A DNA stretch of 64,000 bases from an uncultured Acidobacteriia bacterium (GTDB lineage: Bacteria > Acidobacteriota > Terriglobia > Bryobacterales > Bryobacteraceae). The first letter of the stretch is position 1; each line of letters starts with the position of its first letter. Positions 23,415 to 28,984 of this stretch are shown in pieces. The stretch is taken from NCBI GenBank assembly GCA_903851195.1, contig CAINNJ010000066.1, positions 62,001 through 126,000 on the forward strand. Reading direction: 5' to 3'. The position numbers and the translations under genes were made by a program. The notes under the pieces are model-generated. The model had not been told where the DNA came from. It worked only from the letters and a program-made list of their open reading frames with translations, and did not search any database.

Positions 23415-25352
23415 ATGAAGCGGAACTGGAAAAGGACAGCGATTTGCGCTGCAATCGCTGTCAGCAGCGTCGTCCTTACGCTTCTGCTCGCGAACATTGA
23501 AGTCTTCCGGCTGGTGGATCTGAAGGCGCAGGACGCCCACTTTCTGCTCCGCGGACCCCTGCCGGTCAAGGATATACAACTCGTCGAAATCGACGACAAA
23601 GCCCGCGACAAATACCCTGAATTGCTCTCGGTTTGGCATCGGTATTACGCGGATGCCATGCGTGGCATAGCGCTCGGTGGCGCAAGGGTAATGGTGCTCG
23701 ATGTCGCATTCGGGACCAACGTCGCTAAATACGATCCCGAAGCGGACTCCGTGCTGGCGGGCGCTTTCGCGGAGACCGCGCCGCAGATGCCCGTCATCTG
23801 CGCCTTCGTGCCGGCGAAACTGGAGCAGCAGCAGAGCACGGATTTCATGGTCCCGCTCAACATGATGGCCTCCACCTTCGGCATGGCGGCCTTTCCGAAT
23901 CTCACGGCTGACGGGGATGATTTTATCCGGCGGCAGGTGCTGATCGAGACTCCTCAGCCCGGTGTCCCGACGGAAAGCCTGCTGCGGGGTCTGGCGCTGC
24001 GCGGGGCGGAAAAGTTCGCCGGCAAAGACGCCGAACTGCGGGACGGAAAGCTGTTCTTCGCCGGCCGCGAGGTCCCCCTGGACGCGGAAGGCAATCTGCT
24101 GGTGAATTTTGCCGGTCCGGCCGATACTTTCCCGGTGACTTCCATGGCGGACGTGATCGAGGCGTATCGGGCGGGCAACCGATCGCAGCTCGAAAAGTGG
24201 CTGAAGGGAAAGGCGGTTCTGCTCGGAACGGACGATCGCGGGGATCGCCGGGCGACGCCGTACTTCAGCGCCGCCGCGGTGGGCAGCAAGTGGAACACGC
24301 CCGGTGTGGAGATTCACGCGAGCGTTCTCCGCACGCTGTTGACCGGCGAGTTTCTGCGGTTCGCGCCGCGCCCCGCCCACATCCTCGCTTTGGGAATCGC
24401 CGCGATTCTGAGCGTGGCGGCCGTCACGGCGTTCGCCGCCGTGCCACAGACCGCCGCCAGTTCTCTGTTCGTCCTGCTGCTGCTGATGACCGGTACCCAT
24501 CTTCTGTTTCGCGCCGGCTGGCTGGTGTCGAGTTTCCAGATTCTGCTCGCCTTCGTGATTTCGCAGCTGGGCGGCGTGATTTACCGGTTCGCCACGGCGG
24601 AGAGGAAGAGCAGTTTCTTCCGCAATGCCGTCGCGTTGTTCGTGGGCAAGCAGGTGGCCACGAGCCTTGAGGAAACGCAGCAGATCGAACTTACCGGCAA
24701 GCGTCAGCTGGTGACGATTCTGTTTACCGACATCCGCGGCTTTACCGCGTTTTGCGAAAGCAAAGACCCCGCCGTCGTCGTCGACCTTTTGAACGTTTAT
24801 ATGTCCACCATGGTCGGGATCATCGTGAAGAACGGCGGCCATGTGAACAAGTTCATCGGCGACGGCATTCTGGCGGTTTTTTCCGACGACGACGCGGGCG
24901 CCAAACCGGGTGACCACGCGCTGCGCACTGCCCTTTGCGCGACGGAGATGGTGGAACAGGTGATCGGGGAATTCCGGACCGGCGCCGGCTTTCACTCGGG
25001 GGAAGTGGTTATCGGCAACGTCGGGTCGATCGACAAACTGGAATTCACGGTTCTCGGCAACACCGTCAACCTGGCATCCCGACTGGAGAGTCTGAACAAG
25101 GACCAGCAATCCCGGCTTCTGATGAGTGCGGAATCACATGAAATGTTAGGGGGGGCAATCGACACTGTGTACCTGGGTGCCGTACCTGTAAAGGGGAAGA
25201 CGGAAAAGATGAAGCTGTTTTCCGTGGCGTCGCTCTTCGATGAAGAGCGGCTGGCGGAGATCCGGTCCCGGCACTCTCAGGACGAGGTCAGTTTGCATAT
25301 GGGGCGCGCGGCGAGGGATGAGCGGGAGCTGCGGGCAGAACAGGTCTCATGA
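23415..25352 (+). CDS. CHASE2-domain class III adenylyl cyclase
   Basis: A 645-residue membrane cyclase. One helix at about 9-27 precedes an extracytoplasmic CHASE2 sensor (about 30-315), then three helices (about 321-391), then a cytoplasmic class III cyclase domain (about 430-610). Catalytic residues are visible: metal-binding Asp439 (FTDIRGF) and Asp483 (IGDG), Lys479 and Thr545 in the base-recognition positions, and Asn552 and Arg556 (GNTVNLASR). The Lys/Thr pair fits the class IIIb adenylyl rather than guanylyl cyclases, so cAMP is the probable product. ATG 23415 is chosen because it starts at a basic segment before the first helix. The stop overlaps the next start as ATGA. Confidence 0.9.
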   Translation: MKRNWKRTAICAAIAVSSVVLTLLLANIEVFRLVDLKAQDAHFLLRGPLPVKDIQLVEIDDKARDKYPELLSVWHRYYADAMRGIALGGARVMVLDVAFGTNVAKYDPEADSVLAGAFAETAPQMPVICAFVPAKLEQQQSTDFMVPLNMMASTFGMAAFPNLTADGDDFIRRQVLIETPQPGVPTESLLRGLALRGAEKFAGKDAELRDGKLFFAGREVPLDAEGNLLVNFAGPADTFPVTSMADVIEAYRAGNRSQLEKWLKGKAVLLGTDDRGDRRATPYFSAAAVGSKWNTPGVEIHASVLRTLLTGEFLRFAPRPAHILALGIAAILSVAAVTAFAAVPQTAASSLFVLLLLMTGTHLLFRAGWLVSSFQILLAFVISQLGGVIYRFATAERKSSFFRNAVALFVGKQVATSLEETQQIELTGKRQLVTILFTDIRGFTAFCESKDPAVVVDLLNVYMSTMVGIIVKNGGHVNKFIGDGILAVFSDDDAGAKPGDHALRTALCATEMVEQVIGEFRTGAGFHSGEVVIGNVGSIDKLEFTVLGNTVNLASRLESLNKDQQSRLLMSAESHEMLGGAIDTVYLGAVPVKGKTEKMKLFSVASLFDEERLAEIRSRHSQDEVSLHMGRAARDERELRAEQVS

Positions 25353-28150
25353 CGAGACTCCTCTGCGCCGCGGGATGGCTGTCCTTTGTTTTATCCGCGC
25401 TGCCGGTTCAGGCCGCCCCCGCGCGTGAGGAGCCCGTGGGGTTGGTGCTGGCCGCCGGTGGCGGCAAAGTGCTGCGCTCCGGCACCGAGACTCCGCTGGC
25501 CGTTCGCGCCGGCGACGTGCTCTTTTCCGGCGATGCGGTGCGCTCTGACGCCGGAGCCACCAGTTTTCTGTTCTGTCCCGGCAAGATCTCGCAGATTCTG
25601 GAACAGGGCGCCGAGGTGGCTCTCGACAGCAAAGGGCTGAAGTTGAGAGCCGGCAAACTGGGCGTCTCCAAACCCGTCAATACCTGCTTTCTGCCTCAAC
25701 TGGTGCGGGTCGCCGTGGCCAGCCAGCAACATTACGGAGTCAGCATGACGCGCGGGCTCGCCAAACCCGAGGGTGAGGTGGTCGCCTTCGACGCGCTGCC
25801 CGCGAATGTGCGGGCGGAACTGGCGCCGCTGGAGGCCAGTCTGCAACGGAATCCGGCGGATACGCAGTCGCTGGTGGAAGAAGCGGCGATTTATGATCGG
25901 GCCAAACTCGAAGCCAACGCGCTGGCGGCGTATCGCAAGGCCGCGCTGCAATGGCCGGACGCGGTGTGGATTTCCGGCCGGATCTTCGAACTGGAAGAGT
26001 CGCTCGCCACGCAGGCTGCCATCAAGGCCGCGGCCATCTCGCCCGATGCAAAGACGTACGCGATGATCGTCGGGATCGGGAAATACCAGAAACTCCCCCA
26101 AGACCTGTACCTGCAGTATCCGGAGGCCGATGCCAAAGCGTTCGCATCGCAACTCGGCAGCCCTCGCGGCGGGGCGATTCCGCCGGACCGAATGCTGGTG
26201 CTCACCGATGAGCAAGCCACCACCGCGGCGCTGCGGAACGCGTTTCAGACGTTTTTGAAGGCGCGTCCGGGGAAGAAAGACACCGTATTTATTCTGCTGG
26301 CCGGACACGGCACCGTGGACGGCCGCGGCGCGTTCATCCTGTCCTACGACAGCGATCCGCAGGACCTCTCCTCCACCGCGATTCCGATGACCGAGATTCA
26401 GGCACTGGTCGAGGAGGAACTGTCGAAAGTCGGCCGGGTGGTCTTGCTGGCCGATGTTTGCCGCGCCACCTCCATCGGCAATATCAGGAACGGCTCAATC
26501 GGCACCGCCGTGGAGAAACTGGGCGAGGCGCCGGGCGAAATGCTCGGGCTGGTGGCGTCGCGGCCAAAGGAGACGGGACTCGAAGGGACGCAGTTCGGCG
26601 GCGGCCACGGGGCGTTCGCATATTCGATAATAAAAGCCCTGGAAGGCGGCGCGGACCAGAACAAAGACCGCTCCGTGACGGCGGGCGAACTGATCGATTA
26701 CGTGCGCGCCGACGTCGCCGCGCAGACCGGCAACAAACAACATCCCCGCGATTTCGGCAGCATGGAAGGCGCCACTGCGTTGTCCGACCTTTCGAAACCG
26801 GGCCTTAACATCACGCGTTTCAAGACTTTGTTCGATTCGCGCAACGGCGGTCCGCTTCTGCTGGCTTCCGCCGCGGATCCGCCGCCTGTTTCGCAGGAAG
26901 CGCAGCGGGATATCGACGCGTTCGAGGCCGCGATCAGGGCCAGAAAACTGCTTCCCGCCGAGTCCGGCAGCGCGTTTGGACTTCTCGATAAACTGCGCAC
27001 GGAACTGTCGCCCGAACGAATGCTGATGGAAGAAAACGATCTTCGAGTGGCGCTCGAAAATCAGGCGCAGCAGATGCTGCTGCGCTATCTGGAAGGCGAC
27101 CAGAATCCGCAGGTCAAAACCGATTTCGACGCCGGGTCGCGTTATATGGAAGCCGCTCTGAAGCTGACCCCGGAGTCGCTCTGGCTGCAGGGGCGCGACT
27201 CGTTCTTTGCGGGGCGCGCGCTGCTCTTTGAAAAGCAGTTCAGCCAGGCCGCCGAGCTTCTCGAAAAGGCCGTCCGGATCGATCCGGGCGAGGCGTACGG
27301 GTATAACGCCCTGGGGATCGCATACCTTGAACAGGCGCAGTTCTCGAAGGCGATTCCGGCGTTTCGCGATGCCGCGCGGCTGGCGGCGAACTGGTCTTAC
27401 CCGCTGCACAATCTCGCGGTTGCGTCAGTGGAGGCGGGCGATTCGGAAAGCGCGGTGCGCGCTTACCGGCAGGCCATGAAACTGGCGCCGGATTTCAGTT
27501 ATCTTCCTTACAATCTCGGGCTGATTTACCAGAGGACCAACCGCCGGCGCGAGGCCGAAGAGGCTTATCGCCGCGCGGCCGAAGTCGCTCCCGGTTCGGC
27601 CGAGCCCTGGAACGCACTCGGATCCCTGAAGGCTTCCGAAGGAAAAACCGCGGAAGCCGAGAAGTATTATCGGGAAGCGCTGCGGAAAAATCCGAATCTT
27701 TTGCCGGCCCGGCATAATCTCGCTCTTTTACTTTCCGTTTCGATAGGACGCGAAGCGGAGGCCATCGCCCTGTGGAAAGAGAATCTGGCGGCTCAATCCG
27801 GTTTTCTGCCTTCGCGCCTTGGTCTGGCGGAACTCCTGGTGAAGCGCGGAGAAACCGCCGCGGCAATCGGGCAATATCGGGAAGTAATCGCGGCGCGCCC
27901 GGAGTATGTGGCCGCCAGAGTGGCGCTGGCGGAACTGCTGGGCAAAGCGAACCAGCCGGAGGAAGCGCTTTTACAGTGGCGCGCGGCGGTGCAACCCGAC
28001 GAGCAGAACGCTTCCCTTTGGGAAAAACTGGGCGACGCGGAGCGGGCGCTCAAACATGACAACGAATCGCGCGAAGCGTATGCCAGAGCTTTGCAGGCCG
28101 GCGCGACCAAAGCAGACCGAAAACGTCTTCAGACTAAAATGGCTTTCTAA
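25349..28150 (+). CDS. Exported FecR-like / caspase-like / TPR protein
   Basis: A 933-residue modular protein. A signal peptide (1-25) precedes a FecR-like beta domain (about 28-110). A peptidase C14 (caspase/metacaspase-like) domain spans about 235-480 with the His-Cys dyad: His320 in LLAGHGT and Cys371 in LLADVCRAT. TPR units fill roughly 580-930 (for example AYGYNALGIAYLEQAQFSKA and PYNLGLIYQRTNRRREAEEA). It probably acts outside the cytoplasm, as a cysteine peptidase with a protein-binding tail; substrate and activation are unknown. Its start overlaps the cyclase stop (ATGA), and the next gene starts on the base after its stop, so the three genes are a unit. Confidence 0.85.
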   Translation: MTRLLCAAGWLSFVLSALPVQAAPAREEPVGLVLAAGGGKVLRSGTETPLAVRAGDVLFSGDAVRSDAGATSFLFCPGKISQILEQGAEVALDSKGLKLRAGKLGVSKPVNTCFLPQLVRVAVASQQHYGVSMTRGLAKPEGEVVAFDALPANVRAELAPLEASLQRNPADTQSLVEEAAIYDRAKLEANALAAYRKAALQWPDAVWISGRIFELEESLATQAAIKAAAISPDAKTYAMIVGIGKYQKLPQDLYLQYPEADAKAFASQLGSPRGGAIPPDRMLVLTDEQATTAALRNAFQTFLKARPGKKDTVFILLAGHGTVDGRGAFILSYDSDPQDLSSTAIPMTEIQALVEEELSKVGRVVLLADVCRATSIGNIRNGSIGTAVEKLGEAPGEMLGLVASRPKETGLEGTQFGGGHGAFAYSIIKALEGGADQNKDRSVTAGELIDYVRADVAAQTGNKQHPRDFGSMEGATALSDLSKPGLNITRFKTLFDSRNGGPLLLASAADPPPVSQEAQRDIDAFEAAIRARKLLPAESGSAFGLLDKLRTELSPERMLMEENDLRVALENQAQQMLLRYLEGDQNPQVKTDFDAGSRYMEAALKLTPESLWLQGRDSFFAGRALLFEKQFSQAAELLEKAVRIDPGEAYGYNALGIAYLEQAQFSKAIPAFRDAARLAANWSYPLHNLAVASVEAGDSESAVRAYRQAMKLAPDFSYLPYNLGLIYQRTNRRREAEEAYRRAAEVAPGSAEPWNALGSLKASEGKTAEAEKYYREALRKNPNLLPARHNLALLLSVSIGREAEAIALWKENLAAQSGFLPSRLGLAELLVKRGETAAAIGQYREVIAARPEYVAARVALAELLGKANQPEEALLQWRAAVQPDEQNASLWEKLGDAERALKHDNESREAYARALQAGATKADRKRLQTKMAF

Positions 28151-28984
28151 ATGTCAGATGCTAGCGTACGGCTCAGATTCTGGGGAGTAAGAGGGTCCAC
28201 TCCCACGCCCCAGGTGGAAAACCTGACTTTCGGCGGCAACACGTCCTGCGTCGAAATCCGCACCGCCGCGAACGACTGCATTATTTTCGACGCCGGCAGC
28301 GGAATCCGCAATCTCGGACAGTCTCTGATGAAAGAGGCGGCCGGCCAACCCGTCAACGTCAAACTGTTCCTCACCCATTTTCACTGGGATCATATTCAGG
28401 GTTTGCCGTTCTTTATCCCGATTTACGGTCCAAAGAATCACATTTCGTTTTATACCGGGATTCAGGGCCGTCCGCTGCAGGAAACCCTGGAAGGCCAGAT
28501 GGCCAAGCCGTATTTCCCGGTCGATTTCGATCAGGTGGCGGCGCGGCGCGATTTCAACACGATCGATCCGGGTAAGCACGTGGACGCGAGTGGCATGAAG
28601 ATCATTCCGTTCCCCCTGAACCATCCGCAGAACGCTTCGGGCTATCGCATTGAAGCGCCCGGCGCCGTGATCGTCTACGCCACCGATTACGAACACGGGC
28701 ATCCGACTCTCGACTCCACGCTGCGGGAATATGCCCAGGGCGCCGATCTGCTGATCTGCGATTCCCAATACACTCCGGCCGAGTACGAAAAGCACAAAGG
28801 CTGGGGCCACAGCACCTGGCTGAATGCCGTGCACGTCGCGCGCGACGCCAAAGTGAAGCAGCTTTTCCTGTTTCACCACGACCCGACGCACGACGATCAG
28901 CAGATGATGCGGATCACCGAAGACGCCCGCATGCAGTTTGAAAACACCACCGCCGCGTGGGAAGGCTTCGCCGCCGTTCTTTAA
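28151..28984 (+). CDS. MBL-fold hydrolase, putative cyclic-phosphodiesterase type (COG1235-like)
   Basis: A 277-residue MBL-fold protein without a signal peptide. It opens LRFWGVRGSTPTP and NLTFGGNTSCVEI, the hallmark of the PhnP-like/COG1235 branch. The metal motif HFHWDH is at 76-81, followed by His158 (PLNHPQ), Asp179 (YATDYEHG) and a histidine pair near 242 (LFHHDPTHD). Relatives hydrolyse cyclic phosphodiesters such as 5-phosphoribosyl 1,2-cyclic phosphate or cyclic nucleotides. Here, no phosphonate genes are present and the gene is joined to a cyclase gene, so hydrolysis of cAMP is a reasonable but unproven idea. ATG directly after the upstream TAA; no Shine-Dalgarno, implying translational coupling. 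Confidence 0.85.
   Translation: MSDASVRLRFWGVRGSTPTPQVENLTFGGNTSCVEIRTAANDCIIFDAGSGIRNLGQSLMKEAAGQPVNVKLFLTHFHWDHIQGLPFFIPIYGPKNHISFYTGIQGRPLQETLEGQMAKPYFPVDFDQVAARRDFNTIDPGKHVDASGMKIIPFPLNHPQNASGYRIEAPGAVIVYATDYEHGHPTLDSTLREYAQGADLLICDSQYTPAEYEKHKGWGHSTWLNAVHVARDAKVKQLFLFHHDPTHDDQQMMRITEDARMQFENTTAAWEGFAAVL

What the first reader, a model, noticed from the sequence alone, without database searches (positions are those of the whole stretch)
23415..28984. CHASE2 adenylyl cyclase, FecR-caspase-TPR protein and MBL-fold hydrolase in one coupled operon
Seen: the cyclase stop and caspase start share ATGA, and the MBL gene starts on the base after the caspase stop. Cyclase metal residues (Asp439, Asp483), the caspase dyad (His320, Cys371) and the MBL site (HFHWDH) are intact. 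Known: CHASE2 is an extracytoplasmic sensor, and COG1235-type MBL enzymes can hydrolyse cyclic phosphodiesters. Inference: a synthesis and degradation pair for a cyclic nucleotide, bracketing an exported caspase-like protease. The caspase and CHASE2 domains should both face the periplasm, so the protease may cleave or bind the sensor rather than respond to the nucleotide directly. I know of no described system with this make-up.
Basis: partly seen in the sequence, partly recalled or inferred. Interest (0 to 1): 0.72.

Follow-up and report, generated by a model that had tools for sequence, protein, structure and literature searches.

The report
Caspase-bearing cyclic-nucleotide signalling operon
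A bacterium of a little-studied group carries three tightly linked genes that look built to make a small signalling molecule, break it down again, and place a caspase-like protein on the outer side of the membrane beside the sensor; this is read from sequence and not yet tested at the bench.

Summary
The three genes, the ATGA overlap, the stop-to-start junction and the named catalytic residues are there. The trio is conserved in the window's genus (Bryobacterales): the caspase gene lies directly before the MBL gene in 17 of 17 same-genus relatives with a close MBL match, and the cyclase before that in 14 of 14 where the contig reaches far enough.

The cyclase-caspase pair also occurs in six other genera of the family. 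The MBL joins the operon only in this genus, among loci examined. Elsewhere its homologue sits next to other class III cyclases (9 of 29 loci) or proteins with a cyclic-nucleotide-binding domain (2 of 29). Its solved relatives include YhfI, a proven cAMP/cGMP phosphodiesterase. The synthesis-degradation pair is well supported but unassayed.

Two corrections. 'FecR' fails Pfam; the domain is at most FecR-like. And the plan is not wholly undescribed: Campylobacterota have CHASE2 cyclase + phosphodiesterase + FecR + TPR clusters (PMC9239204). New here are the caspase inside the exported partner and an MBL enzyme as the likely phosphodiesterase. What the protease cleaves is unknown.

The parts
23415..25352 (+). 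CHASE2-class III nucleotide cyclase gene, 645 aa
   Evidence: orthologues
23475..24410 (+). CHASE2 sensor domain (residues 21-332), between one N-terminal and about three later hydrophobic segments, predicted periplasmic
   Evidence: PF05226 E 4.3e-30; hydrophobic segments 6-36 and 319-394, and one at 452-472 inside the catalytic domain
24705..25220 (+). cyclase catalytic domain (residues 431-602); Asp439, Asp483, Lys479, Thr545, Asn552, Arg556
   Evidence: PF00211 E 2.4e-22; D439, D483, K479, N552, R556 the same in 36 of 37 aligned rows, the other (L142) lacking the region; Thr545 in 34, Asp in 2 non-orthologous cyclases
25349..25352 (+). ATGA overlap of cyclase stop and caspase-protein start
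   Evidence: 4-base overlap in 10 of 13 genus relatives with both genes in the table
25349..28150 (+). FecR-like-caspase-TPR protein gene, 933 aa, predicted exported
   Evidence: model of residues 26-933, mean pLDDT 87
25349..25417 (+). signal-peptide-like N-terminus (residues 1-23)
   Evidence: hydrophobic stretch 4-22; similar N-termini by eye in most of 25 orthologues; no signal-peptide program was run
25424..25651 (+). small beta-rich FecR-like domain (residues 26-101), with Cys76; its partner Cys113 lies just after
   Evidence: strands in the model; Pfam FecR not met; weak profile match
26057..26746 (+). Peptidase_C14 (caspase) domain, residues 237-466; His320 at 26306-26308, Asp369, Cys371 at 26459-26461
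   Evidence: PF00656 E 4.7e-12; H320, D369, C371 in 39 of 39 rows
26654..26689 (+). EF-hand-like acidic loop (residues 436-447) near the end of the caspase domain
   Evidence: D436 37 of 39, D440 31 of 39, E447 37 of 39 rows; weak EF-hand matches in 5 of 24 orthologues
27215..28099 (+). TPR array (residues 623-917)
   Evidence: TPR matches; helical repeats in the model
28151..28984 (+). MBL-fold hydrolase gene, 277 aa, predicted cytoplasmic cyclic-nucleotide phosphodiesterase
28376..28393 (+). HxHxDH metal site (residues 76-81); H158, D179, H220 and H243 also invariant
   Evidence: invariant in 17 of 17 rows of A3, 14 of which are of the window's genus besides the window itself or near it

Best explanation
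A self-contained envelope-to-cytoplasm cyclic-nucleotide module. The inner-membrane CHASE2 cyclase senses from the periplasm and makes a cyclic nucleotide, most likely cAMP, in the cytoplasm. The second protein is exported and acts as the periplasmic partner of CHASE2: its FecR-like domain contacts or tunes the sensor, its TPR array binds a client, and its caspase domain is an active cysteine protease that adds a proteolytic input. The third, cytoplasmic protein is a phosphodiesterase that removes the nucleotide and resets the signal. Shown by sequence: gene order, conservation, intact active sites, domain content. Inferred: cAMP as the product, phosphodiesterase activity, export, contact between CHASE2 and the partner, and that the protease acts on the sensor, on itself or on a bound client.
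For: Conserved order with near-zero spacing in the genus. Pair in other genera: 12 genomes of 6 other genera in the family; in the genome scan a cyclase or cyclase fragment lies upstream in 32 of 45 loci with the FecR-like-C14 protein, 16 of 29 if loci of the window's genus (66% identity or more) are left out. Five cyclases are followed instead by a FecR-like-only protein (L137, L138, L140, L141, L233), so that domain is the constant part next to CHASE2. One locus (L210) reads cyclase and partner in one 1859-aa frame. MBL homologues outside the genus neighbour FHA-, FHA-GAF- and Reg_prop-cyclases, an MscS channel with a cNMP domain and an NDH-2 with a cNMP domain: 11 of 29 loci, while cyclases are few, 44 matches in 41 family genomes. 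Co-occurrence: 13 of 14 MBL-positive and 8 of 27 MBL-negative genomes have a cyclase, Fisher one-sided p 1.2e-4; counting only MBL matches at E <= 1e-70, 11 of 12 and 10 of 29, p 9e-4. Motif and fold fit YhfI/Rv1339-type PDEs. The genome has 16 cNMP-binding matches, three of them in one frame, so receptors exist.
Confidence: 0.6

Rival explanations
1. The caspase domain is a scaffold or regulator rather than a working protease: the partner is a periplasmic binding protein that merely retains the fold.
For: FecR-like-only partners do without the caspase domain altogether.
Against: His320, Cys371 and the Asp two before the Cys are kept in 39 of 39 rows down to 35% identity, which is hard to explain without catalysis.
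Confidence: 0.18
2. Caspase-driven death or defence module, like the EACC1 or other conflict-system caspases, with a cyclic nucleotide as the alarm.
For: Caspase plus nucleotide cyclase recalls such systems (PMC8195603, passages); weak match to the EACC1-associated caspase model.
Against: 70.5 bits against a cut-off of 140; kept in 17 of 18 genus relatives; the protein looks exported; no NTPase or effector-associated domain named in the three proteins. A PADLOC scan was not run.
Confidence: 0.08
3. The MBL is an RNase Z-like RNA enzyme that happens to be co-transcribed.
For: RNase Z models are its best NCBIfam matches and RNase Z its best PDB sequence and fold match.
Confidence: 0.1

Closest known systems
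CHASE2 adenylate cyclase / phosphodiesterase / FecR protein / TPR protein cluster of Campylobacterota (PMC9239204, passages read)
   Different: There FecR and TPR are separate proteins and no caspase is mentioned in the passages read; the family of the phosphodiesterase is not named there. No Campylobacterota sequence was compared here.
BiofilmReg operon of Burkholderia (PMC5192318, passages read)
   Same: CHASE2 sensor with an exported FecR-domain partner gene beside it.
   Different: The CHASE2 output is a histidine kinase; the partner carries LysM, not caspase or TPR.
mtxA next to a CHASE2 cyclase gene in magnetotactic bacteria (PMC4439547, passages read)
   Same: Signal-peptide protein with a TPR fold next to a CHASE2 adenylate cyclase gene.
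   Different: MtxA has an Ig-like fold; no caspase.
CHASE2 cyclase and cAMP regulon of Sinorhizobium meliloti (PMC5498481, passages read)
   Same: A CHASE2 cyclase (CyaD1) makes cAMP; among targets of the cAMP regulator are an envelope FecR-domain and a TPR protein.
   Different: Partners are regulon members, not one operon with the cyclase; no caspase.
Caspase-CHASE2 proteins and metacaspase operons (PMC3501461, PMC2853523, PMC8195603; passages read)
   Same: Caspase and CHASE2 in one protein (Trichodesmium; EACC2 systems); Lactamase_B named among the commonest enzymes in metacaspase operons.
   Different: The Trichodesmium fusion is described with its caspase domain in the cytoplasm; no cyclase-plus-MBL operon is described in the passages read.
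Atypical class-II phosphodiesterases Rv1339 and YhfI; Apyc1 (PMC9293780, PMC9117128; passages read)
   Same: PF12706 fold, [T/S]HxHxDH motif, among the nearest folds.
   Different: Not described in those passages as operon partners of a cyclase; Apyc1 is a phage counter-defence enzyme.

Membership tests
CHASE2 adenylate cyclase | CHASE2 and class III cyclase domains over Pfam cut-offs | tested here: met
CHASE2 adenylate cyclase | both metal Asp and the purine-selecting Lys/Thr pair (the pair is recalled, from no call) | tested here: met
CHASE2 adenylate cyclase | makes cAMP | not testable with these tools
   no assay
Peptidase C14 (caspase/metacaspase) | PF00656 over cut-off | tested here: met
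   46.5 bits, cut-off 21.4
Peptidase C14 (caspase/metacaspase) | His-Cys dyad | tested here: met
   39 of 39 rows
Peptidase C14 (caspase/metacaspase) | fold match to solved caspases | tested here: inconclusive
   the 50 fold hits shown are helical-repeat proteins; PDB sequence search found nothing at E <= 0.01
Peptidase C14 (caspase/metacaspase) | peptidase activity | not testable with these tools
   no assay
EACC1-associated caspase | NF047832 cut-off | tested here: not met
   70.5 of 140 bits
FecR domain | PF04773 match | tested here: not met
   none at E <= 1 in 24 orthologues, nor in the window's N-terminal part or 5 FecR-like-only partners
FecR domain | profile similarity to FecR domains of related genomes | tested here: inconclusive
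   hhalign E 0.008 (probability 4.9%) and, reversed, 0.015 (2.9%); C14 control E 0.3 (0.2%); hmmsearch best E 0.19
Atypical class-II phosphodiesterase (Rv1339/YhfI type) | PF12706 and [T/S]HxHxDH | tested here: met
   motif residues invariant in 17 of 17 rows
Atypical class-II phosphodiesterase (Rv1339/YhfI type) | fold nearer to this group than to RNase Z | tested here: inconclusive
Atypical class-II phosphodiesterase (Rv1339/YhfI type) | NF041851 equivalog cut-off | tested here: not met
   73.7 of 400 bits
Atypical class-II phosphodiesterase (Rv1339/YhfI type) | hydrolyses cAMP | not testable with these tools
   no assay
Ribonuclease Z | TIGR02651 cut-off | tested here: not met
   91.2 of 292.95 bits
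PhnP | TIGR03307 cut-off | tested here: not met
   44 of 272.25 bits
Campylobacterota CHASE2-AC/PDE/FecR/TPR cluster | all four functions in one cluster | tested here: inconclusive
   cyclase and TPR present, PDE predicted, FecR only FecR-like; no Campylobacterota sequence compared

The most novel reading that the evidence does not exclude
A periplasmic, calcium-sensing caspase that gates a second-messenger cyclase: the exported protease, docked on CHASE2 through its FecR-like domain and armed by its EF-hand-like loop, cuts the sensor, itself or a TPR-bound client when the envelope is damaged, and so turns proteolysis outside the membrane into a cAMP pulse inside, which the co-encoded MBL phosphodiesterase then clears.
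Probability: 0.25. Interest if true: 0.85.

Novelty: new variant of a known kind. Interest (0 to 1): 0.58.

Why it matters
What most bacterial caspases cut, and what CHASE2 senses, are open questions (the latter is stated for CHASE2 in PMC5192318; the former is general knowledge). Here a conserved, apparently exported caspase is encoded with a CHASE2 cyclase and a predicted phosphodiesterase, so caspase activity could be read out as cAMP in a simple reconstituted system. It also points to a group of MBL enzymes as partners of class III cyclases in this bacterial family.

Tried and rejected
FecR membership: Pfam scan of 24 orthologues and of the partners, and an hhalign test against 24 of 25 FecR domains fetched from 13 genomes (one of 80 aa dropped): not supported, only suggestive.

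Autocleavage site: Arg498 in the low-confidence linker after the caspase domain is present in only 21 of 39 rows, so no site is claimed.

Order of events: cyclase trees did not settle whether the caspase was gained or lost. In one search the FecR-like-only rows lay on one side of a branch (96/93), but that run by my mistake held the unrelated cyclase row L036_0 and left out L036_1. One search corrected this: two changes in the tree, one change in 43% of bootstrap trees, and long branches meeting.

Phylum search: the FecR-like-C14 query matched 28 of 297 genomes at E <= 1e-8, but only the own genome and G247 matched in the N-terminal domain as well; of 18 regions fetched around such hits, only the G247 one (L098) held a relative of the cyclase query. 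So the pair was not seen outside the family there.

Fold search of the caspase protein: the 50 rows shown are, by their titles, helical-repeat proteins, so it neither confirmed nor denied the caspase or FecR fold. PDB sequence search with the FecR-like-C14 profile found nothing at E <= 0.01.

Rows dropped or partial: MBL hits L163 and L164 (partial) were not followed; neighbours of L053, L055 and L058 were seen by local profiles only; for 15 other loci one or two main neighbours were Pfam-scanned. The 39-row alignment holds the window and 38 of the 45 FecR-like-C14 loci; L189, L193, L197, L214, L218, L221 and L227 were left out.
Full report
What is there. The window lies in a 7.7 Mb genome of 67 contigs; the relatives named in the genome scan are mostly Bryobacterales (Acidobacteriota) MAGs. 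Three genes follow each other on the + strand: a 645-aa CHASE2 class III cyclase, a 933-aa protein with a signal-peptide-like N-terminus, a caspase domain and TPRs, and a 277-aa MBL-fold hydrolase. The cyclase keeps both metal aspartates, as do 36 of 37 aligned rows, the other lacking the region. The caspase dyad and the Asp two residues before the Cys are in 39 of 39 rows. HxHxDH, H158, D179, H220 and H243 of the MBL are invariant in 17 of 17 rows.

Conservation of the trio. Of 18 same-genus relatives, 17 hold a close MBL match; the one without, G005, is 88% complete. In all 17 the caspase gene lies directly upstream; in 14 the cyclase (two of them cut at contig ends) lies upstream of that, and in the other 3 the contig ends inside the caspase gene. 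Of 13 such loci with cyclase and caspase genes in the table, 10 overlap by 4 bases, one by 8, and two have gaps of about 30 bases; caspase-MBL spacing runs from a 1-base overlap to a 7-base gap. The flanking YCII and sigma-factor genes were found in 6 of the 17 loci (some contigs are short) and the upstream histidine kinase in none at E <= 1e-20, so the trio is the conserved unit.

Beyond the genus. A cyclase search in 150 family genomes hit 24 at E <= 1e-30. The cyclase is followed by the FecR-like-caspase-TPR protein in 12 genomes of 6 other genera (in G247 split over two contigs, in G361 cut by a contig end), by a FecR-like-only protein of 222-231 aa in L137, L138, L140 and L141, and by neither in L130, L139 and L143; L142 is a CHASE2 protein without a cyclase match. 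L125, L126 and L128 carry a second, solitary caspase gene right after. A scan of one genome each for 84,980 species with two short patterns gave 59 loci: 45 with the FecR-like-C14 protein, 1 cut off before the caspase domain, 1 FecR-like-only (L233), 12 with C14 only. Of the 45, 32 have a cyclase or a cyclase fragment at a contig edge upstream and 13 do not; of the 13, L219 and L232 have too little upstream sequence. Leaving out 16 loci of the window's genus (66% identity or more), it is 16 of 29. MBL directly downstream was seen in 14, all among those 16; in the other two (L197, L221) the contig ends first. L210, L212 and L213 have an MBL within about 3.5 kb. The caspase hits from Cyanobacteria-related MAGs (Melainabacteria, Obscuribacterales and others) are C14 only. 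A phylum search (28 of 297 genomes) found the cyclase relative beside the caspase only in G247 among the 18 regions fetched.

The MBL. Outside the genus I looked at 29 distinct loci with close homologues (L050-L058, L097, L165-L183). In 9 the neighbour is a class III cyclase: seven FHA-cyclases, one FHA-GAF-cyclase, one Reg_prop-cyclase, on either side and in several orientations. In L168 it is an MscS-type channel with a cNMP-binding domain, in L097 an NDH-2 with such a domain. In the other 18 none was found, 15 of them checked by Pfam on one or two main neighbours. Eight more distant homologues (L059-L066), seven with a receiver domain, have no class III cyclase found nearby; the eighth, L065, is itself fused to a cNMP-binding and a GGDEF domain. 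L055 and L058 carry PilZ. Class III cyclases number 44 matches in 41 family genomes, so adjacency by chance would be rare. In those 41 genomes 13 of 14 with an MBL match at E <= 1e-40 and 8 of 27 without have a cyclase (p 1.2e-4); two of the 14 are in the score range of the receiver-fused kind, and with E <= 1e-70 it is 11 of 12 and 10 of 29 (p 9e-4). Relatedness of the genomes makes both optimistic. The closest solved relatives are RNase Z, an ELAC homologue (1zkp) and YhfI. YhfI prefers cAMP/cGMP in assays (PMC9117128, passages); Rv1339, a broad cNMP phosphodiesterase with [T/S]HxHxDH, was modelled on YhfI (PMC9293780, passages). The window protein has THFHWDH. I call it a predicted cNMP phosphodiesterase, not a proven one: it misses the cut-off of the curated cAMP-PDE model by far, and RNase Z models score higher though also under cut-off.

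The partner protein. AlphaFold gives a model of mean pLDDT 87: a small beta domain, a helical linker, an alpha/beta stretch where Pfam places the caspase, and a helical repeat array. The beta domain does not reach Pfam FecR; profile comparison gives only a hint. Cys76 and Cys113 are present together in 36 of 39 rows and absent together in L224-L226, as expected for a disulfide and hence an oxidising compartment; those three rows look closely related, so it may be one event. An EF-hand-like acidic loop near the end of the caspase domain is largely kept (D436 and E447 37 of 39, D440 31 of 39). Calcium dependence is inference, as is a basic P1 preference from Asp369 (recalled from metacaspase work). 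In L210 cyclase and partner are read in one frame; this may be a natural fusion or a sequencing slip.

Mechanism and status. Best reading: the CHASE2 cyclase senses outside and signals inside; the exported partner docks on or tunes CHASE2 and adds proteolysis; the MBL enzyme clears the nucleotide; cNMP-binding proteins (16 matches in the genome) receive it. Docking and the protease's target are inference.

Prior work. Campylobacterota CHASE2 cyclases cluster with a phosphodiesterase, a FecR protein and a TPR protein (PMC9239204, passages). Burkholderia has a CHASE2 kinase with FecR-LysM (PMC5192318, passages), magnetotactic bacteria mtxA with a CHASE2 cyclase gene (PMC4439547, passages), S. 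meliloti a CHASE2 cyclase with FecR and TPR proteins in the cAMP regulon (PMC5498481, passages). Trichodesmium has a caspase-CHASE2 protein (PMC3501461 and PMC2853523, passages); EACC2-caspase-CHASE2 architectures are described (PMC8195603, passages); and a 2012 survey names Lactamase_B among the commonest enzymes in metacaspase operons (PMC3501461, passages), whose supplementary operon table I could not see. Searches for CHASE2+FecR, CHASE2+caspase, CHASE2+adenylate cyclase+periplasmic, FecR+caspase+cyclase, and Acidobacteria+caspase+adenylate cyclase listed no paper that I recognised as describing this trio; the library is open-access only, and I read passages, not whole papers.

Noticed in passing
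L065:4186-6396 (+): One 736-aa protein joins MBL, a weak receiver-like region (under cut-off), a cNMP-binding domain and GGDEF.
   Followed up: no
L125:8425-9414, L126:10079-11029, L128:10408-11265 (+): A second, solitary caspase gene with His and Cys in place follows the partner gene in three genomes of one genus; Pfam C14 matches the L125 copy but not the L128 copy at E <= 1, and L126 was not scanned.
   Followed up: partly
L099:7952-8797 (-): The window's own genome has a solitary caspase paralogue with His and Cys in place and, by eye, a signal-peptide-like start on another contig.
   Followed up: partly
L210:4106-9685 (+): Cyclase and FecR-like-caspase-TPR protein read in one open frame, possibly a natural fusion.
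   Followed up: no
L228, L222: Record titles name Bordetella parapertussis (L228) and an Acidimicrobiia bacterium (L222) for this Bryobacterales-type operon or protein; the L228 contig has the same length as a contig of G247, a genome of the window's own family. Perhaps mislabelled MAGs.
   Followed up: no
L001 / L100 (own genome, C52): A second CHASE2 gene in the same genome, with a histidine-kinase match just downstream, perhaps in the same protein.
   Followed up: no
L168:2248-3684 (-) and L097:4473-6077 (+): MscS-type channel and NDH-2, each with a cNMP-binding domain, encoded directly beside an MBL homologue.
   Followed up: no
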